From Candidatus Zhuqueibacterota bacterium (GTDB lineage: Bacteria; Zhuqueibacterota; Zhuqueibacteria; Residuimicrobiales; Oceaniaggregativiventaceae), in the NCBI GenBank assembly GCA_016929055.1, contig JAFGJN010000236.1, forward strand, positions 1 through 33,522: DNA of 33,522 nucleotides. The letters run 5' to 3'. Positions 7,919-33,522 of this stretch are shown here, in pieces. Positions within the stretch are counted from its first letter, which is position 1. Every line of letters starts with the position of its first letter. The notes below the pieces were generated by a model. It was not told the DNA's origin, did not search any database, and saw only the letters and a list, made by a program, of their open reading frames with translations. Made by a program: the position numbers and the translations under genes.

Positions 7919-9043
7919 ATGCAAAAAGGTGCAGGTGTGTTTCTGTTGTTGGTGATCGGATGTTCGGTTCTATTGGCAAGGGAAAATTCTAAAGATAGCC
8001 TTCCGAAAACGATCGACTCTACCCAAGCCGAAGACTGGGTTGCCGCTCTAACTGGATTGCGTATCGGCGGTCAGTGGTTTCTTGCGTTTTCAAGTGGCAA
8101 AGTTGGCAATCAACCTTACAGCCAATTTGCAGTGGAACGAGGTTATATCACGATCGAAAAGGTGTTTTCCCAACGGTTTTCCGGCCGCATCACACCGGAC
8201 ATATCGGTCGATCGGGATGGGGACGGCGAAGGCGATCTGGAAATGCGGCTGAAATATTGTTATGTTCAGGCCCTGGTGCCGAATATTGGGTTTGTAAAGG
8301 AAACAGCGCTGCAGTTTGGCTTGGTGAACCGTCCCTGGTTGAATTATGAAGAAAAGATCAATACCTATCGTATGCAGGGGCCTTTATTTCTGGAACGCAG
8401 CGATTTGCTCAATTCAGGAGATTTTGGGGTGATGCTGAAAACTTTGCTCGGCGGTTCTTTGGCAAAAGACGAGTTGCCTTATCCCGAAGCTGCGCAGATC
8501 GGTCGATATGGATCCGTGGCAGTCGGCGCCTATAACGGTGGCGGCTACCATGCCATTGAGCGCAACCAAAATAAGACGCTAGAAGCCTGCTTTTCCTGGC
8601 GACCACTGCCCGACTCTTTTCCGGCCCTGCAATTCGCCTATGCCAGTATGTTCGGCAAGGGCAATACGGTCGAGGCTCCGGTTTGGCGTACCCAGATAGT
8701 GCATGCTGCCTGGGAATCTCGGTCGATGACCGCTACTCTGCAGCTCTTCCGCGGTAAGGGGGATTACAAAGGCGAGTATATCGATGACAGCGGAACGAGT
8801 CTCAGCAATAACGGCTGGTCGCTCTTTGCGGAATGGCGGGCCCTCGATCGATGGTCAGTGATCGGTCGGCGTGACCGTTTCGTTCTCGATCGACTTGCGG
8901 ATTCGGATTCGACAGCTCGCTGGATTTTTGGCCTTGTCTATCGGTTCAGCAAGCCTTGCCGGACTTTATTGAGTTTCGAGCAGCAGAAAGACTCTACGGA
9001 GAAGCAATCCGAAATTCAAATTTCATTTGAAACCAAGTTTTGA
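7919..9043 (+). CDS. Putative outer-membrane beta-barrel (porin-like) protein
   Basis: Signal peptide MQKGAGVFLLLVIGCSVLLA; amphipathic strands; C-terminal ...IQISFETKF. ATG at 7919 preferred over 7889. Confidence 0.6.
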   Translation: MQKGAGVFLLLVIGCSVLLARENSKDSLPKTIDSTQAEDWVAALTGLRIGGQWFLAFSSGKVGNQPYSQFAVERGYITIEKVFSQRFSGRITPDISVDRDGDGEGDLEMRLKYCYVQALVPNIGFVKETALQFGLVNRPWLNYEEKINTYRMQGPLFLERSDLLNSGDFGVMLKTLLGGSLAKDELPYPEAAQIGRYGSVAVGAYNGGGYHAIERNQNKTLEACFSWRPLPDSFPALQFAYASMFGKGNTVEAPVWRTQIVHAAWESRSMTATLQLFRGKGDYKGEYIDDSGTSLSNNGWSLFAEWRALDRWSVIGRRDRFVLDRLADSDSTARWIFGLVYRFSKPCRTLLSFEQQKDSTEKQSEIQISFETKF

Positions 9044-9054
9044 GATTCAGGTTT

Positions 9055-10497
9055 ATGTCACCCTTATTCAACCGACAAAACGGCCGCGGGCTGATGATGT
9101 ATCGCATCGCTTTTTTGCTCTCGGCCCTAACTCTCTTTCGCGTTGCCCATGCCGATTCACCGGTCATCCCGCCCGAGTATCGGTTCGATTCCTTGTCTGA
9201 GGCCCTGGCTGAACCTGAAATCGTCTATGAATTGCGCATGAAAAGCCGGTCAGACAAACCTTTGACCACCATACCTCGGGAAATCGACCGACTCGTTGAT
9301 TTGCAAAGACTCGACCTGAGCGCAAACGCCATTCAGAGCATTCCCGGATTTCTCACTCGTCTGCCTCGATTGCATGTCCTGATCCTTAATGGCAATCATC
9401 TGAACTCTCTGCCTCGCCTATTGAGCCGATCGCCGCAATTAAAACATATCGAGGTCGCGAACAACAGAATCGGAGAAATCGAGTCGGGTTTTTCGAATTT
9501 GCGACAACTCGAATCGCTCGTTCTTTCCGGCAATGTTCTGAAATCGCTTCCAGACGATTTTGGCAGCCTCGAAGAAATGAGGGTTTTGATCGCCAACAAC
9601 AATCTCTTTGAGGGAATTGATGAACGGATATTTGCTTTAAAGAATCTGACAACTGTGAATTTTGCTAACAACCTTATCCAGGAATTCCCTGGTACTGTGG
9701 CAAAACTCGAGCGATTGCAGGAACTCAATCTGTCTGGCAATTTGCTGGTTCGTCTGCCGGATCGAATCGGTGAATTGTCGGAGCTGCGCGATCTCTCGCT
9801 TTCTCAAAACCGCTTGGAAGGGCTGCCCCGATCGATCGGTGCTTTGAAAAAACTTGTGCGCCTCGATGTCCGAAAAAATCACTTGCGCCAACTTCCGCGA
9901 GAGATCGGTGAATTGGCTGATCTGGAGTATCTCTATCTCGGCGAAAACGAACTGGAATCACTTCCCTCTTCTCTGTGCGGCCTGGGGCGGCTGCGTCAAT
10001 TGCATCTGAAACGGAATCAACTCTCCCGGTTGCCCGTTGATTTCTGCCAGATGAAAACCTTGGCAACTCTCTATCTCGACGATAACTGCCTCGATCATTT
10101 GCCACTTGATTTTGGCGGGCTGAAAAAATTGCATCAGCTCTATTTGTCTGGAAACAGATTGCGTAAAGTGCCCGAAAGTATCGGTGATTTGCGGGAACTG
10201 GACAAACTGATTCTCAGTGAAAATCAATTGGAAGCCCTGCCGGAATCGATCGATGGCATGACGAATTTGCGAAAGCTTTATCTCGATGACAACCGCTTGA
10301 GTCAATTGCCCGATACAATCAGCCGGTTGTCCAAGTTGCGCATTCTCAGCCTCAAAGACAACCGGTTGAGCCGTCTGCCTCGGGATCTCGAGGGGTTGCA
10401 CGGGCTTCGTTACCTTTATTTGGATCGCAATCCGCTGGAGCCGGGAGAGCTGGAACGCTTGCGTCAAGCCTTGCCCAACACCGCGATTTCGTTTTAA
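9055..10497 (+). CDS. Secreted leucine-rich-repeat protein (17 x 23-aa LRRs)
   Basis: I counted 17 consecutive LxxLxLxxNxLxxLPxxI repeats; hydrophobic signal MMYRIAFLLSALTLFRVAHA. Start could be 9040 (TTG), 9055 or 9094. Confidence 0.85.
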   Translation: MSPLFNRQNGRGLMMYRIAFLLSALTLFRVAHADSPVIPPEYRFDSLSEALAEPEIVYELRMKSRSDKPLTTIPREIDRLVDLQRLDLSANAIQSIPGFLTRLPRLHVLILNGNHLNSLPRLLSRSPQLKHIEVANNRIGEIESGFSNLRQLESLVLSGNVLKSLPDDFGSLEEMRVLIANNNLFEGIDERIFALKNLTTVNFANNLIQEFPGTVAKLERLQELNLSGNLLVRLPDRIGELSELRDLSLSQNRLEGLPRSIGALKKLVRLDVRKNHLRQLPREIGELADLEYLYLGENELESLPSSLCGLGRLRQLHLKRNQLSRLPVDFCQMKTLATLYLDDNCLDHLPLDFGGLKKLHQLYLSGNRLRKVPESIGDLRELDKLILSENQLEALPESIDGMTNLRKLYLDDNRLSQLPDTISRLSKLRILSLKDNRLSRLPRDLEGLHGLRYLYLDRNPLEPGELERLRQALPNTAISF

Positions 10498-18506: not shown

Positions 18507-20333
18507 ATGATTTTTCGTTGCACGGCCTGGCTGCTGATTTTGTTCGGTATCGCTCTTTCGGCCGAAACTCAAAAACCGGATTCGGTGCGTTATCATTTCA
18601 ATCCGGTTGTCGTGACGGCGACCAAGATCGCCGGTGCACAAAAAGATTTGGCGGCCAGTATCAGCGTCATCTCTGCGGAAACCATTCGCCGCACGCCTCA
18701 GGTTTCTTCTCTGGAATTGGTGCGGGATCGAGTGCCGGGACTGTTTCTCACCGAAAAGAACGTCATGGGATACGGCGTCGCCAGCGGTGCGGCAGGCGGA
18801 ATCACCATACGCGGGGTCGGCAGCACTCCGGTCACTGGAGTTTTGGTCTTGCGGGATGGCCGGCCGGACATGATGGGTCTGATGGGCCATGCCATTCCCG
18901 ATGCCTATCCGCTCGACGGCATCGAGCGGATCGAAGTTGTGCGCGGTCCCGCTTCCTTTCTCTATGGCACCAACGCCATGGGTGGTGTCATCAACCTGGT
19001 TTCGCAGAAACACAGACAGAAGGGATTTATAACCCGACTGGACGGGCGCTATGGAACCTATGCCCAGCAGCGCCTTCGCCTCAGCCATGGTGGCAATACC
19101 GGACGATTTGATTATCAACTCTCTATCGCACAAAATCAGACCGATGGCCATCGGCCGAATTCCGCTTATGAATCCACTGTCGCCACTCTGCATAGCGGGT
19201 TAAAAATTTCTCCTCACTTTCATGCCGAAATCAACGCCAACTGGTCGGATATTCTCATGAACGATCCGGGGACGCGTTCAAATCCGGATGCCGATCACTG
19301 GTACGATCTCGTTCGTTCCGGTCTCGATATCACCTTGATCCACAGCGGTTCGACAGGGGAGACGACTCTGAAAGCGCACGGCAATTTCGGCCGCCACAAA
19401 ATTTATGATGGATTTCGTTCGACCGATCAAACGGTCGGCGCGATGCTCTATCACACCGCTGCACTCTGGCCGGGACAGAAAACGACGCTGGGCTTGGATG
19501 TCAAGAACTATGGCGGCGAGATTACCAGCCAAAGCCCCGGATACCGTTTCGGATCTTTCGATGTGACCGAATTTGCACCCTATCTGCATGTGCAGCAGAT
19601 GTTCTGGGAGCGCCTGATCCTCTCGGGTGCTTTGCGGGTTGAAGAACACGAACTCTCCGGTCGCGAGTGGATTCCCGGTCTGGGCCTGGTCTGGCATCTC
19701 GATGACCAGACCTCGATCCGCCTGCAAAATTCCAAGGGTTTTCGCAGTCCGACTATTCGCGAGCTCTATCTTTTCCCGCCGCGCAATCCGGATCTGGAGC
19801 CCGAACGGTTGTGGAACCGAGAAATCGGAATAAGCCGAATGGTGCGAGATTGCGCTCGTCTGGATTTGGCGCTTTTTCACGCGCGGGGAAGCGATTTGAT
19901 CCGCTTGCAGGGCCTCTATATGACCGGACAATGGATCAATTCGGCTGATTTTGTCCATACCGGTTATGAAATCACAGCGGAATGGATTCCCATTGACGTG
20001 CTGGAAATACATGCGACCTGGTCCAAACACGATCTGGGCGATGAAACGCTGAATGCGCCGGGAAAAAAGCTCGGCCTGGGGGTTGTTGCCCGAGTAGGCT
20101 TGCTCGAATTGATGGCCCAAACTCTTGTTGTTCAGGATCTTTACGGAGGCGACCGGCGTACGCAGCCGATGGCCGATTATCAGGTCACCGATTTGAGTCT
20201 GGCTTTGCCGCTTTTTTCGTGTTTTCGTCTGCAGATGAGTTTGAAAAACGCTTTTAACGCCGATTATGAGACCTTGCCGGGCTATCCCATGCCGCGGCGC
20301 ACACTGGTGATCGATGGCGGAATTCGATTTTGA
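18507..20333 (+). CDS. TonB-dependent outer-membrane receptor (predicted nickel or Ni-chelate uptake by context)
   Basis: Plug domain VVVTATKIAGAQKDLAASISVISAETIRRTP, IERIEVVRGPASFLYGTNAMGGVINLVS; C-terminal barrel NAFNADYETLPGYPMPRRTLVIDGGIRF. Confidence 0.93.
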   Translation: MIFRCTAWLLILFGIALSAETQKPDSVRYHFNPVVVTATKIAGAQKDLAASISVISAETIRRTPQVSSLELVRDRVPGLFLTEKNVMGYGVASGAAGGITIRGVGSTPVTGVLVLRDGRPDMMGLMGHAIPDAYPLDGIERIEVVRGPASFLYGTNAMGGVINLVSQKHRQKGFITRLDGRYGTYAQQRLRLSHGGNTGRFDYQLSIAQNQTDGHRPNSAYESTVATLHSGLKISPHFHAEINANWSDILMNDPGTRSNPDADHWYDLVRSGLDITLIHSGSTGETTLKAHGNFGRHKIYDGFRSTDQTVGAMLYHTAALWPGQKTTLGLDVKNYGGEITSQSPGYRFGSFDVTEFAPYLHVQQMFWERLILSGALRVEEHELSGREWIPGLGLVWHLDDQTSIRLQNSKGFRSPTIRELYLFPPRNPDLEPERLWNREIGISRMVRDCARLDLALFHARGSDLIRLQGLYMTGQWINSADFVHTGYEITAEWIPIDVLEIHATWSKHDLGDETLNAPGKKLGLGVVARVGLLELMAQTLVVQDLYGGDRRTQPMADYQVTDLSLALPLFSCFRLQMSLKNAFNADYETLPGYPMPRRTLVIDGGIRF

Positions 20334-20869
20334 GCACACATGGAGCCCAAACCATTGTTTATGTGACCCGGGGAGCCATGGTCATGGCGTTGGGAATTCT
20401 GGTTCCGATTGTTTTCCATGCCATCGGTCTGGGCGCGCTGTTTTTGCCCATGTTTTGGCCCATCGCGATCGGCGCTTTTTTTCTGCCCCCGGGATTGGCG
20501 CTTTTGGTCGGTATGCTGACGCCGCTGTTGTCCACTCTGTTGACCGGAATGCCGCCGATATCGCCGCCGATCGTTCTGGTGATGATGGCTGAATTGGGCG
20601 CTTTGGCCCTCGTCATTGCCGTTTTGCGGGGGTACTGCCGTTTGCCCGATATTTTGGTGCTGTTTATCGCGCTGCTCGGTTCGCGTATCGTTCTTTTTCT
20701 CGTCCTGATCTCTCTGATCCCTCTTTTGGGAATCCCGTCGGGCGCCCTCTCGACCGCTCTCGTCCTTCGCGGTGTGCCGGGCATCCTGGTTATTTTGATC
20801 GTTGTGCCGATTCTTTTGTACGCGCTCCGCCGTGTGTTGGTCAGCGGCGAGTGGAATCGTTCAACCTGA
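20330..20869 (+). CDS. ECF-transporter S-component-like integral membrane protein
   Basis: Hydrophobic throughout; FHAIGLGALFLPMFWPIAIGAFFLPPGLALLVGMLTPLLSTLLTGMPP resembles ECF S-component families; TTG start overlaps the stop of the TonB receptor gene. Confidence 0.7.
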   Translation: MSTHGAQTIVYVTRGAMVMALGILVPIVFHAIGLGALFLPMFWPIAIGAFFLPPGLALLVGMLTPLLSTLLTGMPPISPPIVLVMMAELGALALVIAVLRGYCRLPDILVLFIALLGSRIVLFLVLISLIPLLGIPSGALSTALVLRGVPGILVILIVVPILLYALRRVLVSGEWNRST

Positions 20870-21505: not shown

Positions 21506-22594
21506 TCAGCGCAACAAAACAATTCGTTGCACCAGATGATGGCTCGATGTGGTCAAAACCGCATGATAAACGCCGCTTGCCGCCTGCTCGCCGCTATCCT
21601 CAAGACCATTCCATACAACCCGATGAACACCCGCCTGCATCGGAGCGTTCACGAGAACGCGTATGGCTTGTCCCAACGTGTTGTAAATTGAAATCTCGAT
21701 TTGATCGTCCTTTGGCAGAGAAAAGGAAAAGGTTGTTTCCGGATTGAACGGATTGGGAAAATTGGGCGACAGAACCGGTGTTGTGGGCATGACTTGAAGA
21801 CAAATCGGCTCGTGCTTGCCTTGATTGCCCTGGAAATCAACACTGATCAGTTGATATCGGTAGATCTCTCCGGGCTCGATGGCGGTATCGACAAAGCGAT
21901 AGGACTGGCGCGACTGGCTGTTGCCCGCCCCGGGAATCAACGCTTCGTTCAAGAGGCTGAAATGCGATTCGTCTCCAACTGCGCGTTGCAGCATAAATCC
22001 GAGATTTTCAGTTTCGGATTCCGTGATCCAGCAGAGATGGACACCATCTCTGCCGATTTCAGCGCTAAAACCGGAAAGCTCGATTGGTACGGTAAAGGGT
22101 GGCGGCTGCAAAAAGATAAATTTGTAATCAATGAAATTGCCAAGCCAATCGGCAATACGGGTCAGTTGTGATCGATCCCAGGCAATACCGGACAGCGCGG
22201 TGGTATCGAGGACGCGAAACAGCAACCGAATGACCCGTGTGGGTGCAAACGGTACTGGTACGCCGATTCCCTGGTCTGTGCGCACGATGTGAATGACAAT
22301 GCGCGGCGGATAGTCCTGGGCGACCATCGGCAGATAAGAGGGTGAATAATTTGAATCCCACAGCCCGTCATAGCGAGTATCCTGTCCGATAAACGCCAGC
22401 GCAGCATCGTTGTAATCGAGAACCAGGGTGGCGTCGCCGAGGTGGTCGGGCATGCCATCAACGGTGTTGAACAAGAGGTCGACGACCAGGGTGTTGTTGC
22501 TCAGCCACTGATCGATTCGGGCTTCATAGGTTTGTGCAACGAGCGGCAAAGCGAGCAGAAACAGGGAAAGGGCGGCCCCGTGATGCGTTTTCAT
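21506..22594 (-). CDS. Secreted protein: cohesin-like N-terminal beta domain, Ig-like 'TESETENLGF' module, FlgD-Ig/type A C-terminal sorting domain
   Basis: Signal peptide MKTHHGAALSLFLLALPLVAQ; GDATLVLDYNDAALAFIG (cohesin-like); LSPNFPNPFNPETTFSFSLPKDDQIEISIYNTLGQAIRVLVNAPMQAGVHRVVWNG... Confidence 0.75.
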   Translation of the reverse strand: MKTHHGAALSLFLLALPLVAQTYEARIDQWLSNNTLVVDLLFNTVDGMPDHLGDATLVLDYNDAALAFIGQDTRYDGLWDSNYSPSYLPMVAQDYPPRIVIHIVRTDQGIGVPVPFAPTRVIRLLFRVLDTTALSGIAWDRSQLTRIADWLGNFIDYKFIFLQPPPFTVPIELSGFSAEIGRDGVHLCWITESETENLGFMLQRAVGDESHFSLLNEALIPGAGNSQSRQSYRFVDTAIEPGEIYRYQLISVDFQGNQGKHEPICLQVMPTTPVLSPNFPNPFNPETTFSFSLPKDDQIEISIYNTLGQAIRVLVNAPMQAGVHRVVWNGLEDSGEQAASGVYHAVLTTSSHHLVQRIVLLR

Positions 22595-22764
22595 AGTTGC
22601 CTCCTGCAAGGTGCCTGACTGAACGGTTGCACGCGTGAGTTTTCAACGCGGTCATCTCTTAAATATACGATATTATTTTACTATTCGCTACAAAATTCAA
22701 AGAGAGAAGGGTAAAAGGGTTCGAGTAGAGGATTATGGGAGCCGTTCGGGTTTCGCGGGGGTTT

Positions 22765-25700
22765 TCAGGGCAAATGGTTGAAAAGAATCAGATAATCGGA
22801 GGTTGTAACGAAACCATCGCCGTCCAGATCCGCGATGCTAAAGGTCCATCCGCTTTGCGTCATTCGACCGTACCATTGGTCGACATCCTGCAGAGAGATC
22901 AAGCCGTTGCGATCGATATCGCCGCATTTACTGCCCCAAAGGTCGGTTGAAAGTTTAATGCTGCGCTGCGGATCGATACAGTTTGAGGAAAAATCAAAGG
23001 TTTTTGTTTCCCCGGCTTTCAGAGTCAGAGGATCGGTGCTGACGACTGTCAGGTGGTTGCGATGCACCAAAGCCAGGTAATAGGAGCCGGGCGATGCATC
23101 CACTGTCAGGTGAGTATCCGGCCTATCGGCGCTCACCAACATACCGTCGCTGCGCAGCAGGGCGTCGCAAAAAGCTGTCGCTTGCCCTTCGGGAGTCATC
23201 CGCAGCTCCAGCCGAACCCAGTCGACTATTCCCTGCAAATTTTTTTCTGTGCGGACGAAAGGATCATAGGGCGAAACAGAGGGCAGGATTTGCCGATTTG
23301 CGCGCCGATCGCGCATGCGCCCGAGTTCGGGATCGTAGGGCCCCTCGAGAAAGGCTTTGCAGATCAGGTAAAGAGGGGCAGCGTGGAGGGTAAAAGCAGT
23401 TTCCGCCGCAGCCTCTGACAATCGGTCGCCGGTGTCGACGGTGTGCAGCTGTGCATAATACCGTCCAGGCGGCAATCCGGCAAGGCTCCATCCGCGGTTG
23501 GTACCGAGGACGCGACCGAAATTTTGGTTGAGAAGGGAAAAAATATCGTTGCCTCCCACGGTGGTTCCGACAGTGAGCTGGTAGCGCAAGGCCGATCCAG
23601 GAGTTTCCGAATCAGTTGCTTCGGACCACAAAAAGGAGACGGTGTCATTGGTGGCAACGGCGGTAAAATTCAGCGGTGCTGCCGGTGCCCGATTTTTCCG
23701 GGGTGATTGATTGACCTGAAGGCGGCAGACACCGGCGTCATCGCTCAGGAAAAAGAGATCGGTGTCCCCGTCCCCATCCATATCCCATAGCGCTGCTCGA
23801 CCGGCGAACGGAAACTCGACTTGGAAATCGGGAATCCAGGCTCCGGTTTTGAGGGCGATCAGCGTCTGAACCATGGTATGCTGAGCGGAGGGAGATCCGA
23901 TGATGATCAAATCGGCAGCGCCGTCCTGATTCAGATCTCTGGCAAGAATCTGACTCAGCGGCCATTCGGATTCGAAAACAGTTTGCATCTCCCAAGTGCG
24001 GTCAGAGGCCCCGGGATTGTGCAGCACCAAAATCCGCCCTGTTCGTTCTTCCGTTTCACTGCTCAACAGTAAATCGGACAAACCGTCGGATTCAAAGTCC
24101 ACCCAAAGCATCCGCCAGTTTGATCCCATGGGCAGAGGATGGTCATGGACGGCAAAAGAGGATCGATCGCCTCGGTTTTCATAGATCCGCAAAATCCACT
24201 GCTGATTTGCTTTTTGACCGATGGCGAATCCATCGAGATCGGCATCGAGATCGGCGTCCATGCTGCCGACAGCACTCCAGTGTATCCGGCTTGAATCGTT
24301 ATAAACGGATTCAAGACGCACGGGCATAGCCGAATTGGCTGCAAGGCGGGTTTCCAGAAAAGAGAGTCGATTTGCTCCCGCAACGATAAAATCTGGCAGA
24401 CCGTCATTGCCCAGGTCGGTACTGGTGAGCGCCTCTGGCCGGTAGGGGAGGGGGATCGCCTGGTTGCGACGAAGGGTTGGCTTTAATCCGGATTTTTCAT
24501 GCCAAAGCCAGGTTTCCATCGTTCCTGTTTCGCTCCCTGCATGGATAAGAATGAGATCTTTCCAGCCATCGAGATCCAGGTCAGCGGTTGTCAAGGCCTG
24601 CTTTCCGTATAGATCCGGCATCTCTTCCGTTTGAACGGGTTGCCCATACCATTCGTTTCGCTGTACCAGCCGGCTCGAGGCCAGTTCGATCGTCGGCGAT
24701 GTACCGTCGATTTTGTCGGCAATCAGTATTTCCGTTCCTCGATTCAGGTGCCATTGATCGAGATGCCAAAATCCGACATCCTTACCTTGCAGAACTGGCG
24801 ATTCCAGTGCAATCGTTCGGAAGGATCGATACTCGCGCGGCGTCAAACTGCCATCGCCAATCAAAAGCATACCATACCACCAGGATGCATCGCTTTCAGT
24901 GGGCTGATCCAAAACCTGATTCAACCAGGTCAAGAAGGCATTGCCAAAAGTCGCCTCCTGCCCGAGCCGTTGATAAAAGACTCGATCGCTCCACATACCG
25001 CCGATTTTGCTGCTCGACCAGGCCACCAGCCCCGGACGATCGGGATTAAAGAGAACCGCTCCAGCCAGGTAATTGTTCATGGTAAAATCGGCTGCTGCGC
25101 AGATATACAGCGAATAAAAAATCGATTGGGGATCGTGGTGCAAATAATCAAAGGTATTGACCTGCCTGACTGTTGAATAATCCTGTTCGACAAACGAATG
25201 CGCCCGGCTTGATCCGTGCGAACGGATATGCAGGTACTCGATGATACTATCGGCCAGAACGGTTTTCAAGTGCGCTGCGGTGGTGGTATTGGGTTCATCA
25301 ACGGCTTGAATGGCTTGTGCTGCGTAAAAGGCCTGGGCGTTGGTGATATCGCTCGCCGTCATTTCACGCCAGTCGTCATCGTTGTAAATCAAGGCCCTGC
25401 GTACTGGCTGATAAATCCCATGGCGGAATTCATGGTTTTTCTTCAGGTAAGCTCGCACAACCTCTGTTTCGTCGCCGAGCAGATAGAGATTATGGGCGGC
25501 GATACGGCTCACCCAGATTTCAAGGGAGAGATTGCCGCGACGTTGATCGTATTTGCCGTTTTCACCCTGTAAGATGTCCCCGTCTCCCACGTCCAACCAC
25601 TCGCCATCGAGATCCATAAAAAAAAGGTCGCAAGGAAAATCCTCGTATTCCGGAAAGGAATAGTCGCGTTGTGCCAATTCGAATAAGACATAGGGGATTT

Positions 25701-26112
25701 CGCCGATCAGCACGGCGCCGCTCAGACCTTCCTGCTGTCGATAGAGGTCGTATAAAAAGTCTCGCAGGCTTGCTGCGCTGCCTCCGCGATATTCAAAAAC
25801 AATGACACCGAAACCCACACCGGTGAGATCTTGCGAATATGTTTCCAATTCGTGGGACAAACTTTTGAGCAGTCGTTCGTGAACGATCAGGGCGATTCGG
25901 CCTCTGGTGAGCAGAGGATTTGCTGGCAGGGTATTGATAATGGATCCAGACAATGCTCCACTGAATTGACCCGAAGGGGGGACTTTGTGAATGCTTTTGT
26001 TCCAACCTTCGACATCACGCCATTGTGTTACACGCGGTTGCTGGGCGAAAAGCGTGTGGGCCGAGGCGAAACCGAGAATAAAAAGAAGCAGAGTCGAGAT
26101 AAATTTGCGCAT
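22765..26112 (-). CDS. Secreted gingipain-like (clan CD/C25-like) cysteine protease with VCBS/FG-GAP repeats, Fn3-like domain and C-terminal type I-like dockerin
   Basis: Signal MRKFISTLLLFILGFASAHTLFAQ; LHIRSHGSS and YICAAADF dyad motifs; FG-GAP-like DLDLDGWKDLILI/DLGNDGLPDFIVA; dockerin GDIDRNGLISLQDVDQWYG...ADLDGDGFVTTSDYLILFN. Confidence 0.75.
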   Translation of the reverse strand: MRKFISTLLLFILGFASAHTLFAQQPRVTQWRDVEGWNKSIHKVPPSGQFSGALSGSIINTLPANPLLTRGRIALIVHERLLKSLSHELETYSQDLTGVGFGVIVFEYRGGSAASLRDFLYDLYRQQEGLSGAVLIGEIPYVLFELAQRDYSFPEYEDFPCDLFFMDLDGEWLDVGDGDILQGENGKYDQRRGNLSLEIWVSRIAAHNLYLLGDETEVVRAYLKKNHEFRHGIYQPVRRALIYNDDDWREMTASDITNAQAFYAAQAIQAVDEPNTTTAAHLKTVLADSIIEYLHIRSHGSSRAHSFVEQDYSTVRQVNTFDYLHHDPQSIFYSLYICAAADFTMNNYLAGAVLFNPDRPGLVAWSSSKIGGMWSDRVFYQRLGQEATFGNAFLTWLNQVLDQPTESDASWWYGMLLIGDGSLTPREYRSFRTIALESPVLQGKDVGFWHLDQWHLNRGTEILIADKIDGTSPTIELASSRLVQRNEWYGQPVQTEEMPDLYGKQALTTADLDLDGWKDLILIHAGSETGTMETWLWHEKSGLKPTLRRNQAIPLPYRPEALTSTDLGNDGLPDFIVAGANRLSFLETRLAANSAMPVRLESVYNDSSRIHWSAVGSMDADLDADLDGFAIGQKANQQWILRIYENRGDRSSFAVHDHPLPMGSNWRMLWVDFESDGLSDLLLSSETEERTGRILVLHNPGASDRTWEMQTVFESEWPLSQILARDLNQDGAADLIIIGSPSAQHTMVQTLIALKTGAWIPDFQVEFPFAGRAALWDMDGDGDTDLFFLSDDAGVCRLQVNQSPRKNRAPAAPLNFTAVATNDTVSFLWSEATDSETPGSALRYQLTVGTTVGGNDIFSLLNQNFGRVLGTNRGWSLAGLPPGRYYAQLHTVDTGDRLSEAAAETAFTLHAAPLYLICKAFLEGPYDPELGRMRDRRANRQILPSVSPYDPFVRTEKNLQGIVDWVRLELRMTPEGQATAFCDALLRSDGMLVSADRPDTHLTVDASPGSYYLALVHRNHLTVVSTDPLTLKAGETKTFDFSSNCIDPQRSIKLSTDLWGSKCGDIDRNGLISLQDVDQWYGRMTQSGWTFSIADLDGDGFVTTSDYLILFNHLP

Positions 26113-26301
26113 TTTTTTGCCTGCCAGGACAACGCCGGGTATTTTGCCACTGGAATGCAAATATTACACCAAACCCTCGACGAATTGGACAATCAGGTTT
26201 TTGAAAAGTTTGAAAATAATGTAAAGCTAATAAAAATAGTAAATTATGGTCGTGTCAACGACTGTGTTGACCGATGCTAAAAGTAGGAATGAAAAAGAAA
26301 A

Positions 26302-26385
26302 GAACGGGTGCAGGAGCCCCATTTTTTAGACCGGTGTTGCCTGGATGACCCAGTGCGGTCGAAAAACCGAGTCCTGCACCCGTTC
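26302..26385 (-). terminator. Oversized intrinsic terminator / structured 3' element
   Basis: Perfect 14-bp stem GAACGGGTGCAGGA/TCCTGCACCCGTTC enclosing a second nested stem (GACCG..CTGG..CCAG..CGGTC); on minus strand followed by TTTTCTTTTT; lies just downstream of the 26427 stop. Confidence 0.7.
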
Positions 26386-26426
26386 CGGGTGAGCGATTGG
26401 GTTATTTTGGTTTAGGAAAATTTTCC

Positions 26427-29033
26427 TTATTTCAGCAGAATCATCTTTTGCATTTTTTCAAAATTGTTGATACGCAACGAATAGAGATAGGTTCCGGTCG
26501 GCACCACATTGCCATCCTGGTCGCGTCCATCCCAGGTGATGGTATGGCTGCCGGCTTCGAGGCTGGCGGTGACCAGAGATCGCACGTGCTGACCATTGGT
26601 GTTGTAGATATCCAGTTCGACATAGCCGGGATCTTTAAGAGCAAATTTGATGCGCGTTTCGAGATTGAAAGGATTCGGATAGTTTTGCTCGAGCAAATAG
26701 CTTTTTGGACTGGAGGCCTGAAGTGAAATCGACTGACTGTAATTGACCTCTCCGTTAAAGCTGATATCGGCCAATTTGTAAAAATAAGTCTTGCCGGCGA
26801 CCAGTTCCTTGTTATCGAGATAGGAATAGGATTGCGAAACCTGGCTGTTGCCGGCGCCGCTGATCATGCGGTCGTTGAGGCGAATGTATTCGCCTTCTGC
26901 AGTTTCGGCGCGATAGAGATCAAAACCCATGTTTTCGGTTTCCGATTCAGTGGTCCAGTGCAGGATGACGGCGTTCTGTTCCCAGCTTGCTGAAAAAGAC
27001 GAGAGTTGAATTGGCACAAGCACATGGACCTGTGCGGCTGCAGAATTGTTGTCGAGATTGGGGTCTCGATTTTCGCTGGAAACGAAAACATGGTTATCCA
27101 TTGCACCGCTCACATCTGACGCGCGTGCGGTCAGGACGATGGTAAAGGGTTCGGCGCCGGGTTCCATAACCGGAACAATCCAGACAAGTGGATTGGGACC
27201 TTCGTTCTGTGCCGGAACGGCGGAAACGAATTCGAGATTGGCCGGGAAATCGTCATAGATTTCGACATTAAAAGCGGCATGCGGCCCGTTGTTCCAGGCG
27301 CGAATCGTGTAGGTAAAAGTCTCGCCGAATTTGATATTGTCGGCGCTGACTATTTTTTCGATCTGCAGGTCGGAAACCTGTTTCTGTTGCACACCAGCGT
27401 CCCAGATGGTTGGGTGGTCGCCCCAGTTCAGCGCAAATTGCACTGTCCGTCCGGTTTCTGAATCGGCATCGGAATCGATCGTATCATCATCGCCCTGATT
27501 CATGGCGGTGAAAAAATAGTCGGGCGGCAGGATGAATTCGAGTTGGTAGATGCCAGGTTCCAGATCGCTAAAGGAATAGAGGCCGTCGGCACCAGTTGTT
27601 TGGCTGGCAATTACTGAGCCTTCACCATCGAGTAGATTGACCTGCACGTTGGCCAGACCGACTTCACCGGGGTCCTGAAGGCCGTTTCGATTTTCATCCA
27701 GCCAGACCCGGTCGCCGATCGATCCCGGCTCCTGCGGGGTGGTATTGATGTCTTCATCCTCAAGTACCGGAAAATCGAGACCTATTTCATCCTCATAGCA
27801 AACTCGGGCGATATTTTCGATCGTTGAACCCGGTCCGGCAACGACTTGATAGGTCAATTCCAAATCCACGATCGAGCCGCTCGGCAATTCGCCGAGTGCC
27901 CAGGTTACGGTTCGCGTCGTTTCACTGTAAACTCCGCCACTGCTGGCTGAAACGAATTCGATGCCGTCGGGCACTGTGTCGGTGACGCGGGTGTTGTAAG
28001 AGATGCCGCGGCCCGTGTTTGTCACGCGAATCCGGTAGGTATAAATATCGCCGGTTTCCACCACAGTAACGCCGTCGTCCTTATCGATCGTCAGATGTGG
28101 CAAGGCATACCAATTGTCATAGTAGGGTGGACCATAGATGATGATCTGGTTTAAATCGCCCAGATAGAGATTGATTCGCCACCACCCCGGAACCGGATTG
28201 ATAAATTCATCGCCATCAGAGGTCGGCAGCTCGAGAGAGCCGGTATTCCATTCCATCTCTCCGGAAATGGTCCCGGTAACAGTCTCTCCAAGCGGGTTGG
28301 TGATGTCGTATTGCCATGTCGATTCTTCGCCATCCATGTCAAAATTCCAAACATTCACTCTTTCTCTGTTCTCTTCGACATGGAACCACAGGATGACTTC
28401 ACCAGGGCCGTTGGACTGGATCGATGTGCGATAGGCCAATAACGAGATTTCATCGCCATTATGGGGCTGGCCGTCAGGATCGTTGTCCAGGACACCAAGT
28501 TTGTAGCCGTTTTCATCATCCTCTTCGGTGGATACCCAAATGGTATAGATGCCGGGACCATAGTCTCGAATCGGAAACTCGGCGATTGTTTGCCAGGTTT
28601 CTGATGTGATCGGATCCGGCGGAAAGGAAACATCCGAGATCAGGGTTTCACCATCCGGTGCCACAACCTGGAAATAGGTATAATCCCAACGACCATTGCC
28701 GTTGATTTTGGGTTTGTCCATCTCGTCGAGATCGCCGTTTGTCTCATAACTTTCGGGGTCATAGACTTGAACGGTCACAACGAAATCAGGATCGGCGGAC
28801 TCGGGGACGATCATCTGAAAGTGGTGCGGCTGGTTGCCGTAATCTTGAGCCGCCCACCAGTCCCCGTTGTCCAGTGGTGTTTCGGGACCGCTGGTCTGGA
28901 AAAAGATATGATCGTAGAGCGGGAATACAATCGGCGCCGCTGCTAGGGGGGAGATAGAGGCGATCAGCACCACTACCCCGGCTAAAGCTGCCAGCCAACC
29001 CCTGCTGTTCACATTTTTTTGCTTTTTCAACAT
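26427..29033 (-). CDS. Large secreted protein with DUF11-like repeats, SdrD-B-like domain and C-terminal sorting domain
   Basis: TIDKDDGVTVVETGDIYTYRIRVTNTGRG and LQIEKIVSADNIKFGETFTYTIRAWNNGPH (DUF11); GSIGDRVWLDENRNGLQDPGEVGLANVQVNLLDGEG (SdrD-B); YLLEQNYPNPFNLETRIKFAL...KMILLK. Confidence 0.88.
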   Translation of the reverse strand: MLKKQKNVNSRGWLAALAGVVVLIASISPLAAAPIVFPLYDHIFFQTSGPETPLDNGDWWAAQDYGNQPHHFQMIVPESADPDFVVTVQVYDPESYETNGDLDEMDKPKINGNGRWDYTYFQVVAPDGETLISDVSFPPDPITSETWQTIAEFPIRDYGPGIYTIWVSTEEDDENGYKLGVLDNDPDGQPHNGDEISLLAYRTSIQSNGPGEVILWFHVEENRERVNVWNFDMDGEESTWQYDITNPLGETVTGTISGEMEWNTGSLELPTSDGDEFINPVPGWWRINLYLGDLNQIIIYGPPYYDNWYALPHLTIDKDDGVTVVETGDIYTYRIRVTNTGRGISYNTRVTDTVPDGIEFVSASSGGVYSETTRTVTWALGELPSGSIVDLELTYQVVAGPGSTIENIARVCYEDEIGLDFPVLEDEDINTTPQEPGSIGDRVWLDENRNGLQDPGEVGLANVQVNLLDGEGSVIASQTTGADGLYSFSDLEPGIYQLEFILPPDYFFTAMNQGDDDTIDSDADSETGRTVQFALNWGDHPTIWDAGVQQKQVSDLQIEKIVSADNIKFGETFTYTIRAWNNGPHAAFNVEIYDDFPANLEFVSAVPAQNEGPNPLVWIVPVMEPGAEPFTIVLTARASDVSGAMDNHVFVSSENRDPNLDNNSAAAQVHVLVPIQLSSFSASWEQNAVILHWTTESETENMGFDLYRAETAEGEYIRLNDRMISGAGNSQVSQSYSYLDNKELVAGKTYFYKLADISFNGEVNYSQSISLQASSPKSYLLEQNYPNPFNLETRIKFALKDPGYVELDIYNTNGQHVRSLVTASLEAGSHTITWDGRDQDGNVVPTGTYLYSLRINNFEKMQKMILLK

Positions 29034-29245
29034 GAATCACCTCCCATAAAACACGCCATGAATTTCCGGTTTTGCTCGTTATTGAAGTATAATTATTACG
29101 CCTGTCACTCTTTTATAGCTTTTCATTTGGTTTCACTATATTTGTAAGACTATAAAAAACAAAATATTAAGTCGTTTTCGAGTCAGGCTCACCATCTATA
29201 CTTCAACAAACGTGCCAGAGATGGCGGCAAAAGGGGGAGCATTAA

Positions 29246-29279
29246 AAAAAGGGTTGCGCCGATCGGCACAACCCTTTTT
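29246..29279. terminator. Rho-independent terminator (symmetric, downstream of the 29299 gene)
   Basis: AAAAAGGGTTGCGCCGATCGGCACAACCCTTTTT. Confidence 0.88.
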
Positions 29280-29298
29280 GTCAGGAATGCAAGAGGAA

Positions 29299-30456
29299 TC
29301 AGTGCAGCAATTGCATTTTTTGAATTTTGGTATAGTCCCCCGCCTGCATGCGATAAAAATAGAGGCCACTGGAGACCGGATTCTGGTTGTCGTCACGACC
29401 GTCCCAGATGCGTTCATAGGAACCGGCTTCGAGATTTTCGTCGACGAGCGTGCGCACCTCCTGTCCGCGGGTGTTAAAGATGGTTATCTGCACCCGGCCG
29501 GTTTCCTTGACTTTGTATTTGATCCGCGTTTCCGGGTTAAAGGGGTTGGGAAAGTTCTGGCCCAGTTCATAAGCCTTTGGCGCGGTGGCAACGACTTGCA
29601 CCGGTCCATGGGCCATCTGATTGCCATAGGTGTCGATATCGACCAGTTTGTAGAAATAAGTATGGCTGGCATGGACTTCCGTGTCGTTAAACGAATAGCT
29701 GTTTTCGCTGGTCGAATTGACCGCGCCATGGATCAGTTCCTTGTTCAGTCGGGAATATTCGCCTTTTTCGCTTTCGCTGCGCAGGATGTTGAAGCCGAGA
29801 TTTTCCGTTTCCGACGCCGTCTTCCAGCTCAGATCGACCACTCCGTCGGTGGATGCGGCTTCGAACGAGATCAACTCCACCGGAACGACCTGGGGATTCA
29901 AGTTGATTTCGAGCAATTCCGATCCCGGGGGCAGTTCTGCGCCCTGCACATGTACATTATCCATAGTGCTGACGAAATAGATGGGCGGCATGGGGTCAGG
30001 ATACCAATCGACAGCTCCTAACTGTTCAACTGTCTCATAAGTAACTCTGAATGTGACTACCCTAATCCATTCTTCGTTACTCGGGATAATGACAGATTCG
30101 CCGGATCTATGTTGATAGAGCAATTGGATCCACGTCGCACTTTGATCAGGAAGAGCCGGAAAAGCCTCGTTGATTTGGTAGGTGCCTCCATCATCAACAT
30201 TCGGAAAAAGTCTGTTTTCAGTGACGATGCTTTGGAGTTTTTGCGTAAGTGTACCGTTTAAACGGATGGCATTCTGGAATATTCGTATCGGATGTGCGGT
30301 ACCATCACCTTTTATTTGCACGTCAAAGATCACGGTGGCTGTGTTGTCCACTGGACTCTTGTAGTTGCTGACAAACATCAGCCGTGTATCAAGCTGGGCG
30401 AACGAGAGTGTCGTCCCAATCAAGATAAAAAGGACAATATAAAGTTGTCTTTTCAT
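29299..30456 (-). CDS. Secreted beta-sandwich (possibly cohesin-like) protein with Ig-like module and C-terminal sorting domain
   Basis: Signal MKRQLYIVLFILIGTTLSFAQ; LMFVSNYKSPVDNTATVIFDVQIK; SETENLGFNILRSE; YELGQNFPNPFNPETRIKYKVKETGRVQITIFNTRGQEVRTLVDENLEAG; RBS GAGGAGGTG. Confidence 0.78.
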   Translation of the reverse strand: MKRQLYIVLFILIGTTLSFAQLDTRLMFVSNYKSPVDNTATVIFDVQIKGDGTAHPIRIFQNAIRLNGTLTQKLQSIVTENRLFPNVDDGGTYQINEAFPALPDQSATWIQLLYQHRSGESVIIPSNEEWIRVVTFRVTYETVEQLGAVDWYPDPMPPIYFVSTMDNVHVQGAELPPGSELLEINLNPQVVPVELISFEAASTDGVVDLSWKTASETENLGFNILRSESEKGEYSRLNKELIHGAVNSTSENSYSFNDTEVHASHTYFYKLVDIDTYGNQMAHGPVQVVATAPKAYELGQNFPNPFNPETRIKYKVKETGRVQITIFNTRGQEVRTLVDENLEAGSYERIWDGRDDNQNPVSSGLYFYRMQAGDYTKIQKMQLLH

Positions 30457-30482
30457 TGATGCACCTCCTCAAAAATTAAGAT

Positions 30483-31871
30483 CTATTGCAAAATGTCTTT
30501 AGGCATAGGAAGAACAGTTCCTTCAATGGCATTCTGAAATGAAAGATCGCTATCATAGCCATCCACATAACCTGTGCAGTCGTAATCTCCCATCAATCCA
30601 TAGCCCATTTGTAGTGCATCGGTACGAGTCTGTTCCGAATCATATCCGTCGATATAGTTGTTTAAAACACTTGCCCAATTATTCGTATCATAGTATCCAT
30701 CGCTGGCCACGGCAGCCCATATCTGTCGAGTACCGCCTCCAAAAGTTTGCAAAGAGATTTGCTTTGAACCATTCTTGAGTAGATAAGTGTAGTATTGATC
30801 TGTCGACTGGGTAAAATCATAAGGCGCCGATGCGCTCAGGGCCGCCAATTGTTCTCCGGTCATTGACTGCGTCATTACCGCCACATGGTTGCGGTGCCTG
30901 AACAAAACATAGTAATTGGTAGTCGGATTCGGCTCCATGTCCAGCAGCGCACCTGGTGTTGTCCCGTCGCTCTCCAGAATATTTCCAAAGATGTCGACGA
31001 ATACGCTGCGCGAGGTGACGATCGAATTGACATCGCTGGGATCGGTTACAACGGCTATCCAGATCCAGTCGGCAACATGATCGGGCATAGTGGCCGGTCC
31101 GGCTAAATGGTCGCGAAAGGGTGAAGTTGAAGGAACCTGTCCGAATCCCATATCCTGCATGAATTGATGATGGATTTGGCCAGCTTGAGATGGGGGGCTG
31201 ATCAAGTATGGGTTGTCCGTACGATACGATAATCCTTGGAAGCAGATTTTGGCAAAGAGCCTCGCGACCAGCTGTTCATACGGCGCACCATACCAGGTCG
31301 AGCTTCCGGCGGGCAGGGTGGCGCCGGTGGTGTTGAAAACCGTCCACTCTCCGGTGGTTGCCGATTCTTCGACACTCGGCTCGACGTTTGCCCAGCTGGC
31401 GGCCAACCGCCACACGCGATAGGGAGCGGTGCCGGCTTTTTCATTGTAGGGATGGGCCGCTGTGGCAAAGCGAACATCGAAATTCCCGGAAACGGCACCG
31501 CCGCTGTTGTTGACCGTCCAGTAACGCTTCCAGGCGGTCGCCGGTCCCCCCGGAGTGAGCGGCGGATTCACGCTTGACGGCAACGTGATCCGGGTGACGG
31601 TCGAGGCCGCCGGAATAGCGGTTTTCCAGTCGAATCCGGCAAACTTGCTGAAGGTACTGCTGCGGGTTCCCGAAGTGATCTTGCCGATAAAGTAGCTGGC
31701 GCCGCTTTCGGTCAGATCGCCGCTCAACTCGACATAGACCGGATAATCGTTGGAAACCCGGCTCGTCTCGACCACAATGCCGTTTTCCAGCACCAGATCG
31801 ACGTTGCCCCAGGCTGCTGCAAAAAATGCCAGCAAAAAAATAGCTGCGATGTGATGATACTGCACTTTCAT
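30483..31871 (-). CDS. Secreted protein of unknown function with C-terminal dockerin/EF-hand-like repeats and no sorting domain
   Basis: Signal MKVQYHHIAAIFLLAFFAAAWG; C-terminus NNYIDGYDSEQTR...GDYDCTGYVDGYDSDLSFQNA (duplicated Y[IV]DGYDS Ca-loop-like); RHRNHVAVM module shared with the protease. Confidence 0.7.
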   Translation of the reverse strand: MKVQYHHIAAIFLLAFFAAAWGNVDLVLENGIVVETSRVSNDYPVYVELSGDLTESGASYFIGKITSGTRSSTFSKFAGFDWKTAIPAASTVTRITLPSSVNPPLTPGGPATAWKRYWTVNNSGGAVSGNFDVRFATAAHPYNEKAGTAPYRVWRLAASWANVEPSVEESATTGEWTVFNTTGATLPAGSSTWYGAPYEQLVARLFAKICFQGLSYRTDNPYLISPPSQAGQIHHQFMQDMGFGQVPSTSPFRDHLAGPATMPDHVADWIWIAVVTDPSDVNSIVTSRSVFVDIFGNILESDGTTPGALLDMEPNPTTNYYVLFRHRNHVAVMTQSMTGEQLAALSASAPYDFTQSTDQYYTYLLKNGSKQISLQTFGGGTRQIWAAVASDGYYDTNNWASVLNNYIDGYDSEQTRTDALQMGYGLMGDYDCTGYVDGYDSDLSFQNAIEGTVLPMPKDILQ

Positions 31872-32324: not shown

Positions 32325-33522
32325 CTATTTGAGAAATTCCATTTTGCGCGTTTCGACTTTGCCGTTCATCTCCAGTTTGTAGAGATAGACCCCACTGGGC
32401 ATCAGGCGTCCGGCATCGTTGGTACCGTCCCAGACAACCGCATGGGAACCGGCTGACATGGCTCGGCTCACCAACGTGCGCACGCGCTGACCATTGAGGT
32501 TAAAGATCGACAACTGCACCGGGCCAGATTCGGTCAGGTTGAACCGAATCGTTGTCGACGGGTTGAACGGATTGGGGTAATTCTGTTCCAGACTGAATTC
32601 TTCCGGCATGTTGAGCGTAACTTCGATCGGACCATAAAGTGTCCGGCGGCCGCTATAATCGATGTCCGCCAGCTTGTAATAATAGGTCTGGCCGACATCA
32701 GCCGTTTCATCGCGATAGCTGTAGCGGTGCTTGCTCGAACTGTTGCCGGCACCCTGGATGATTTTGTCGGTAATCTGGTTGAAATCACCCTGTCGAGACT
32801 CGCTTCGATAGATATGGAAGCCGAGGTTCTTGGTTTCGGATTCCGTGATCCATTCCAGAAAGACGCTGTTGCCGTCGATCGATGCGCTGAAAGAAGAGAG
32901 CTCGACCGGAAAGGTGACACAGATCGAACCCAGCAAAGAACCGGTTACGTCGCAGCCATTCAAATCTTCGACCCGATAGCTGGATGGATCCCAGGTGAAA
33001 CAGCCTTCTTGGGAAGTCAGATCGTATTCCACTCGAACGGTGAGGATGGTCTGCCAGGTACCGTCGATTTCCACACGCGAGTCGAGTTCAGAACCGCTAA
33101 AGAGATAACCGAATTCGATCTGATTGACCGTGCTGAAATAGGCCGGCACCGGATCGCCGGTATAGTTTCCGTTGGCGGCAAATGCATCGAAGGGAAAGGT
33201 CACCGACGGATTCAACGTCGCCAACAGCGGATCGACATTGATGATCGGATCATAGAGATCGCAGGCGATGGTTGCACCGCCAGACGTTCTCGCCTGGATA
33301 TCAAAGACCAGGGTGCCGCGGCCTTCACTTGGCACATCCGGATCATTGCTGACCAGCACCATCTGGGTATCCACCATATCCTCCGGGCAGCCCGGCTCGA
33401 TTGTGGTGTCGGTCGGGTCGTCTTCGTCGGGTGTGTCTGGATCGTCCGAGGGTTCGGCCGGCCAGTCCTGCGGCGCTTCATCATAGGTGTCGATAAAGGC
33501 CTGGTTAGAGATCGACGTACCG
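32325..33522 (-). CDS. Secreted multidomain protein with Ig-like module and C-terminal sorting domain; 5' end truncated by the window edge
   Basis: FSLEQNYPNPFNPSTTIRFNLTESGPVQLSIFNLNGQRVRTLVSRAMSAGSHAVVWDG; the frame stays open upstream of the listed ATG at 33377 (TSISNQAFIDTYDEAPQDWPAEPSDDPDTPDEDDPTDTTIEPGCPED|MVDTQ...). Confidence 0.82.
   Translation of the reverse strand, partial: GTSISNQAFIDTYDEAPQDWPAEPSDDPDTPDEDDPTDTTIEPGCPEDMVDTQMVLVSNDPDVPSEGRGTLVFDIQARTSGGATIACDLYDPIINVDPLLATLNPSVTFPFDAFAANGNYTGDPVPAYFSTVNQIEFGYLFSGSELDSRVEIDGTWQTILTVRVEYDLTSQEGCFTWDPSSYRVEDLNGCDVTGSLLGSICVTFPVELSSFSASIDGNSVFLEWITESETKNLGFHIYRSESRQGDFNQITDKIIQGAGNSSSKHRYSYRDETADVGQTYYYKLADIDYSGRRTLYGPIEVTLNMPEEFSLEQNYPNPFNPSTTIRFNLTESGPVQLSIFNLNGQRVRTLVSRAMSAGSHAVVWDGTNDAGRLMPSGVYLYKLEMNGKVETRKMEFLK

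What the first reader, a model, noticed from the sequence alone, without database searches (positions are those of the whole stretch)
21506..31871. Repeated two-gene cassette: dockerin-bearing protein followed by a cohesin-like protein with a sorting domain
Seen: the same arrangement occurs twice on the minus strand. The protease (22765-26112) ends in a dockerin and has no PNPFNP sorting domain; the next gene (21506-22594) has a cohesin-like N-terminus (GDATLVLDYNDAALAFIG) plus a sorting domain. The 30483-31871 product ends in duplicated YIDGYDS/YVDGYDS loops and has no sorting domain; the next gene (29299-30456, 26-bp gap) has a beta-sandwich N-terminus plus a sorting domain. Known: dockerins bind cohesins, and PNPFNP-type C-terminal domains are export/anchoring signals in T9SS-type lineages. 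Inference: the sorting-domain proteins are surface receptors that capture soluble dockerin-tagged partners, giving a non-cellulosomal, proteolytic surface assembly with cognate gene pairs.
Basis: partly seen in the sequence, partly recalled or inferred. Interest (0 to 1): 0.75.

Follow-up and report, generated by a model that had tools for sequence, protein, structure and literature searches.

The report
Matched surface-docking gene pairs in KSB1
In this uncultured bacterium, and across related phyla, secreted proteins (some of them proteases) end in a dockerin plug, and the next gene often makes a matching cohesin-type socket that the cell exports to its surface, which suggests a build-it-by-address surface assembly like a cellulosome but not for cellulose.

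Summary
In detail: two minus-strand gene pairs, each a dockerin-tailed protein followed by a protein with a T9SS type-A sorting tail. Two things were missed. Both dockerins follow a shared ~110-150 aa 'HRNHL' module that matches no Pfam, NCBIfam or PDB sequence. The same module plus dockerin ends about 200 proteins in KSB1, Calditrichota, Ignavibacteria, Cloacimonadota, Marinimicrobia and Bacteroidota. Within the order, dockerins whose two F-hand recognition segments repeat each other sit next to a sorting-tail gene in 15 of 16 cases, asymmetric ones in 4 of 41. Dockerin similarity tracks similarity of the partner's N-domain, not of its sorting tail. One partner domain type modelled confidently; its best PDB matches are all cohesins. 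30483-31871/29299-30456 is a conserved pair (5 genomes), so cognate docking is likely there; binding is untested and that anchor's own fold is only inferred through linked profiles. 22765-26112/21506-22594 is probably not a direct pair: the protease carries the asymmetric dockerin class, whose apparent socket lies on separate adaptor proteins, while the 21506-22594 socket type is elsewhere paired with another dockerin type. Best reading: a client-adaptor-anchor surface network, a new variant of cohesin-dockerin systems.

The parts
30483..31871 (-). dockerin-tailed protein P0004 (462 aa): signal-like N-terminus, unknown N-domain, HRNHL module, dockerin
   Evidence: homologues in G012, G013, G020 and (distant) G001, each next to a 29299-30456-type gene
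30756..31250 (-). HRNHL module of P0004
   Evidence: no Pfam/NCBIfam/PDB sequence match
30486..30701 (-). dockerin-like tail of P0004, two F-hand segments with repeated 'DGYDS' (first Ca loop degenerate)
   Evidence: family-level match of this part to PDB dockerins
29299..30456 (-). anchor protein P0003 (385 aa): cohesin-like N-domain, Fn3-like linker, T9SS type-A sorting tail
29887..30399 (-). cohesin-like N-domain of P0003
   Evidence: profile link to anchor type A3 96.3%, A3 to Pfam-type cohesins 88.5%; no direct link to cohesin; AF2 failed
29302..29553 (-). sorting tail of P0003 (PNPFNP)
   Evidence: TIGR04183 32.5 bits over cut-off 23
22765..26112 (-). C25 (gingipain-family) peptidase P0002 with FG-GAP repeats, HRNHL module and asymmetric DYxxW-class dockerin
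22948..23364 (-). HRNHL module of P0002
22768..22932 (-). dockerin of P0002
   Evidence: PF00404 14.9 bits and EF-hand 19.1 bits, both under cut-off; class by sequence
21506..22594 (-). anchor protein P0001: cohesin-like N-domain, linker, sorting tail
22100..22534 (-). cohesin-like N-domain of P0001
   Evidence: profile link to A3 96.6% and to Pfam-type cohesins 65%; 41% identical to the own-genome anchor on contig C127
26427..29033 (-). DUF11/SdrD_B surface protein with sorting tail between the two pairs; conserved in place in G012 and G013
32325..33377 (-). further P0003-type domain with sorting tail, open at contig end (P0006)

Best explanation
The locus encodes part of a non-cellulosomal cohesin-dockerin surface network. 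SHOWN: secreted 'X' proteins end in an HRNHL module plus a C-terminal dockerin and lack a T9SS tail; anchor proteins have a T9SS type-A tail behind a ~165-aa N-domain; the two are encoded side by side far more often than chance; dockerin and N-domain types covary; one N-domain type models as a cohesin. INFERRED: the dockerin (Ca2+-dependent, two-fold symmetric) plugs into its neighbour's N-domain, so P0004 is held on the cell surface by P0003. The C25 protease P0002 is a client of the asymmetric DYxxW dockerin class; in this genome the likely bridge is an adaptor on contig C127 (cohesin-like domain of the type found next to a DYxxW dockerin, + HRNHL + symmetric dockerin), whose own dockerin type matches the socket type of P0001 and of the C127 anchor. 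So P0001 would hold P0002 through the adaptor rather than directly. The HRNHL module probably buttresses the dockerin, as X-modules do in cellulosomes. Confidence is for the core (P0004-P0003-type docking); the three-tier adaptor part alone is about 0.45.
For: Adjacency 45/194 downstream vs 13/159 upstream; symmetric dockerins adjacent 15/16 vs asymmetric 4/41 in the order, Fisher p 2.6e-9, within-protein motif identity 0.48 vs 0.17 between proteins. Covariation over 51 pairs: nearest dockerin neighbour has the nearest partner N-domain in 26 of 51; Mantel rho 0.35, partial on HRNHL module 0.26, p about 0.002, whereas the sorting tail of the same anchors does not follow the dockerin (rho -0.13). 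Fold: type-K anchor domain in an in-frame read-through model (pLDDT 81; cohesin part mostly 76-96) matches cohesins in its 25 best PDB hits, E from 1.1e-5. Dockerin. P0003/P0004 pair conserved in G012, G013, G020 and, with another dockerin protein, G052; gene order P0004-P0003-P0005-P0002-P0001 conserved in G013. Adaptor: cohesin-like N-domain in nine X proteins of nine genomes, homologous (E 1e-26 to 1e-35) to the anchor that directly follows a DYxxW protein in L134; genomes with adaptor all have DYxxW dockerins (9/9) against 3/13 without, p 5e-4. P0001-type anchors follow 'VIxx[AG][ED]D' dockerins in L061, L284/L109, L281, L282, L288. T9SS translocon SprA_N and PorV family in the genome.
Against: No interaction was measured and no multimer model could be run. 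The fused AF2 model has pTM 0.56, which does not show a confident complex. P0003's own domain gave no usable model (pLDDT 41) and no direct cohesin profile match; its link is transitive. P0004's first Ca loop is degenerate and its dockerin is unlike those of its pair relatives in G012/G020. Pairs are inherited as units, so part of the covariation is shared descent (the HRNHL module also covaries). The adaptor/DYxxW co-occurrence is clustered in two families, so independent events are few. P0002-P0001 adjacency is conserved in G013, which favours some direct relation. Several P0003-type domains occur without a dockerin neighbour (L278-L280).
Confidence: 0.62

Rival explanations
1. One reading: both window pairs are direct cognate pairs; P0002's dockerin binds P0001 as P0004's binds P0003.
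For: P0002-P0001 adjacency and orientation conserved in G013 with a 58-bp gap; P0001 domain is cohesin-related.
Against: P0002's dockerin is the asymmetric DYxxW class in both genomes, whereas P0001-type anchors elsewhere follow a different symmetric type; gap in the window is 155-170 bp; no P0001-type anchor in G012 next to the P0002 homologue.
Confidence: 0.2
2. The HRNHL-dockerin tail is itself an export or sorting signal (a third kind of T9SS-type tail), and sorting-tail neighbours are simply co-expressed surface proteins.
For: Always C-terminal, 199 of 200 lack a T9SS tail; the named best 78 loci are all from FCB-group lineages, where T9SS is common; something must carry these proteins across the outer membrane.
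Against: Does not predict type-by-type covariation with the neighbour's N-domain but not with its sorting tail, nor two-fold symmetric recognition segments concentrated in paired genes, nor a cohesin fold in the neighbour.
Confidence: 0.13
3. The tails are generic Ca-binding repeats with a structural role and the neighbours are unrelated surface proteins kept in operons.
For: P0004's first loop is degenerate; P0003-type domains occur in proteins without a dockerin neighbour.
Against: Adjacency asymmetry, covariation and symmetry statistics; cohesin fold.
Confidence: 0.05

Closest known systems
Cellulosomes with multi-tier scaffoldins (C. thermocellum, A. cellulolyticus, R. flavefaciens)
   Same: dockerin-tailed enzymes, X-module-dockerin tandem, adaptor proteins bearing a cohesin and a dockerin of different type, anchoring scaffoldin; dockerins with two similar interfaces and dual binding (PMC5429695, PMC5934362, abstracts)
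   Different: anchors have one cohesin-like domain and a T9SS tail instead of S-layer/sortase anchoring; clients largely proteases and unknown proteins; HRNHL module has no sequence match to known X-modules; sockets mostly outside Pfam Cohesin; many types encoded as adjacent pairs
Candidatus Stygibacter (Cloacimonadota) cellulosome-like system (PMC8542988)
   Same: dockerin-bearing C25 gingipain-like and S8 peptidases, cohesin protein with a conserved C-terminal domain for surface attachment
   Different: there one large scaffoldin with tandem Pfam cohesins and CBMs; here single-socket anchors next to their plugs; no HRNHL module, pairs or type covariation reported in the passages read
Noncellulosomal cohesin-dockerin modules (e.g. 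C. perfringens glycosidases; Peer et al. 2009, from my own knowledge and cited in PMC8542988)
   Same: cohesin-dockerin use outside cellulose degradation; C. perfringens cohesins are among the Foldseek hits
   Different: no T9SS anchors, no HRNHL module
T9SS type-A substrates (TIGR04183)
   Same: anchor proteins carry this tail; SprA and PorV family present
   Different: dockerin-tailed partners lack any T9SS tail

Membership tests
Dockerin type I (PF00404) | two Ca-binding loop-helix repeats, C-terminal | tested here: met
   family level: 10 of 73 HRNHL proteins hit PF00404 at E<=0.001, best 9.5e-10; profile matches PDB dockerins; model shows two helices at the right places
Dockerin type I (PF00404) | Pfam gathering score for the window's own two proteins | tested here: not met
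   P0002 14.9 of 22.9 bits; P0004 no hit
Dockerin type I (PF00404) | Ca2+-dependent binding to a cohesin | not testable with these tools
   needs ITC or pull-down
Cohesin (PF00963) | Pfam gathering score for the anchor N-domains | tested here: not met
   no hit for P0001, P0003 or most types; one relative (L165) at E 0.014
Cohesin (PF00963) | cohesin beta-sandwich fold in this kind of anchor domain | tested here: met
   for type K only (not the window's types): 25 best PDB matches all cohesins
Cohesin (PF00963) | cohesin fold for P0003 itself | tested here: inconclusive
   AF2 model pLDDT 41; transitive profile link A14-A3-A8, direct link absent
T9SS type-A substrate | TIGR04183 tail over cut-off and T9SS translocon in the genome | tested here: met
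Cellulosome | multi-cohesin scaffoldin with CBM plus dockerin cellulases | tested here: not met
   window has neither; clients mixed, proteases prominent
Cellulosomal X-module | beta-sandwich directly N-terminal to a dockerin | tested here: met
   position and predicted beta fold
Cellulosomal X-module | sequence relation to known X-modules | tested here: not met
   PDB matches of profile A1 fall in the dockerin part; only a chance-level hit to the module

The most novel reading that the evidence does not exclude
The plug-and-socket pair is a split T9SS substrate: the dockerin-tailed protein has only a Sec-type N-terminus and no T9SS tail, folds and docks onto its cohesin-like partner in the periplasm, and crosses the outer membrane as the partner's passenger, so one T9SS tail exports two polypeptides and the dockerin type is the address.
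Probability: 0.17. Interest if true: 0.85.

Novelty: new variant of a known kind. Interest (0 to 1): 0.62.

Why it matters
It would be a widespread, multi-type cohesin-dockerin network in Gram-negative T9SS lineages, where plug and socket are encoded side by side. That gives natural pairs of differing type for studying and engineering dockerin specificity, a new X-type module, and a direct way to ask how proteins without a T9SS tail reach the surface.

Tried and rejected
Pfam/NCBIfam on anchor N-domains: no cohesin. AF2 of the P0003 N-domain with a 4-row alignment: pLDDT 41, not used for fold search. A deeper alignment for it (A10) misplaced the core strand, so it was not submitted; closer relatives came from loci that the structure tool does not accept. 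In-frame read-through of the window's own pairs for a fused model is impossible (frames differ by 2); a relative pair in frame was used instead. HMM of anchor profile A3 against PDB sequences: only chance hits. Profile-profile controls with the HRNHL module were negative as they should be. Considered and rejected: that the two window cassettes are duplicates of each other; that this is a cellulosome.

Full report
WHAT IS THERE. The window is a whole contig (C320) of a 4.05-Mb draft genome, 90.5% complete. Relatives in its order include contigs whose lengths equal those of deposited 'candidate division KSB1' genomes, so a KSB1-type lineage is inferred. On the minus strand, 5' to 3', lie P0006 (32325-33377, open at the contig end), P0004 (30483-31871), P0003 (29299-30456), P0005 (26427-29033), P0002 (22765-26112) and P0001 (21506-22594). 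P0001, P0003, P0005 and P0006 carry T9SS type-A sorting tails over the curated cut-off; P0002 and P0004 do not. P0002 is a C25-family peptidase with FG-GAP repeats.

THE MISSED MODULE. P0004 and P0002 share a module just before the dockerin, with the signature VDWVxxELR ... HRNHLxVMS ... YDFT (BLAST E 0.001 between the two; both were used to retrieve the same kind of ORF, 84 in all). It has no match in Pfam or NCBIfam for these proteins and no convincing PDB sequence match. About 200 distinct proteins were collected; the module is followed by a dockerin at the C-terminus and only one also has a T9SS tail. N-terminal parts include subtilases, C10 peptidases, alpha-amylase, GH9, lyase, FG-GAP and, in 4 of 73, a Pfam cohesin.

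THE TAIL IS A DOCKERIN. 10 of 73 such proteins hit PF00404 (best E 9.5e-10), and the C-terminal part of the family profile matches solved dockerins. Many tails have two F-hand segments that repeat each other, while the repeated motif differs between proteins (VQNDDKNDYW, VDANDRNxTW, VNATDYLxVK, VDAIDxNxYWRPNNG, DGYDS). Identity of recognition positions is 0.48 within proteins and 0.17 between (permutation p 2e-4).

THE NEIGHBOUR IS A SOCKET. A sorting-tail gene follows within 130 bp in 45 of 194 cases, against 13 of 159 upstream. In the order, 15 of 16 symmetric dockerins have it and 4 of 41 asymmetric ones (p 2.6e-9). Across 51 pairs, similarity of the dockerin predicts similarity of the partner's N-domain but not of its sorting tail; co-inheritance explains part of this, since the HRNHL module also covaries. 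A read-through model of one in-frame pair (L108, stop read as Trp) gives well-predicted HRNHL, dockerin and N-domain; its 25 best PDB matches are all cohesins. It does not show a confident complex (pTM 0.56). Profile comparisons link anchor type A3 to Pfam-type cohesins (88.5%), P0001's type to A3 (96.6%) and to cohesins (65%), and P0003's type to A3 (96.3%); P0003's type does not reach cohesins directly. Type K does not either by profile although its model is a cohesin, so a missing profile hit is weak evidence.

THE WINDOW'S TWO PAIRS. P0004-P0003: the same pair of protein types is adjacent in G012 (L036), G020 (L037), G013 (L273, gap 31 bp, tail FLDSFDS/FVDSFDD against YIDGYDS/YVDGYDS) and, with a different dockerin protein, in G052 of another family (L274). 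P0002-P0001: adjacency is kept in G013 (58 bp) within a conserved gene order P0004-P0003-P0005-P0002-P0001, but not in G012. P0002's dockerin is the asymmetric DYxxW class in both. P0001-type anchors elsewhere follow another type (L061 in the own genome, L284/L109, L281, L282, L288).

THE LIKELY BRIDGE. Nine X proteins in nine genomes carry an N-terminal domain of anchor type A3/A13 plus HRNHL plus, where the contig allows it to be seen, a mostly symmetric dockerin. That domain is closest to the socket of L134, which directly follows a DYxxW protein (4-bp overlap). Genomes with such an adaptor all hold DYxxW dockerins (9 of 9; 3 of 13 without; p 5e-4), though the distribution is clustered by family. 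In the own genome, contig C127 encodes a papain-like DYxxW client, the adaptor and a P0001-type anchor in a row. Hence the model: client (P0002) - adaptor (C127) - anchor (P0001 or the C127 anchor). This three-tier reading is inference.

COMPARISON. Known multi-tier cellulosomes and the Cloacimonadota system of PMC8542988 are the nearest relatives. What differs is single-socket T9SS anchors, adjacent plug-socket genes of many types, and the HRNHL module. I found no paper on this in KSB1; only open-licence papers were searchable.

LIMITS. Gene calls are from a simple ORF caller; sampling of neighbours was by similarity to the HRNHL module; no binding, localisation or multimer evidence exists here.

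Noticed in passing
G000 and 21 relatives: PorV-family outer-membrane proteins are strongly expanded: 30 matches in the window's genome, 22-43 in each relative.
   Followed up: no
L061:1-4089 (own genome, contig C127): Three genes in a row: papain-like protein with DYxxW dockerin, adaptor with cohesin-like N-domain and symmetric dockerin, and a P0001-type anchor with sorting tail.
   Followed up: partly
L031, L191, L192, L195: A separate set of Pfam-grade cohesins in large proteins, followed closely by 'DFDEDLDIDTRDFALLATFWKP' dockerin-like segments, recurs across the order.
   Followed up: no
window 26427-29033: DUF11/SdrD_B adhesin-like protein with sorting tail is conserved between the two pairs in G012 and G013; role unknown.
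   Followed up: partly
window 18507-20869: TonB-dependent receptor gene overlapping an ECF-transporter substrate-component gene, a likely small-molecule uptake pair.
   Followed up: no
window 9040-10497: Leucine-rich-repeat protein; the database names are of effectors and internalins but the match is probably to the repeats only.
   Followed up: no
L102 (own genome C236), L289, L275, L286: P0003-type domains also sit in large proteins without an adjacent dockerin gene, so the domain may have further uses.
   Followed up: partly
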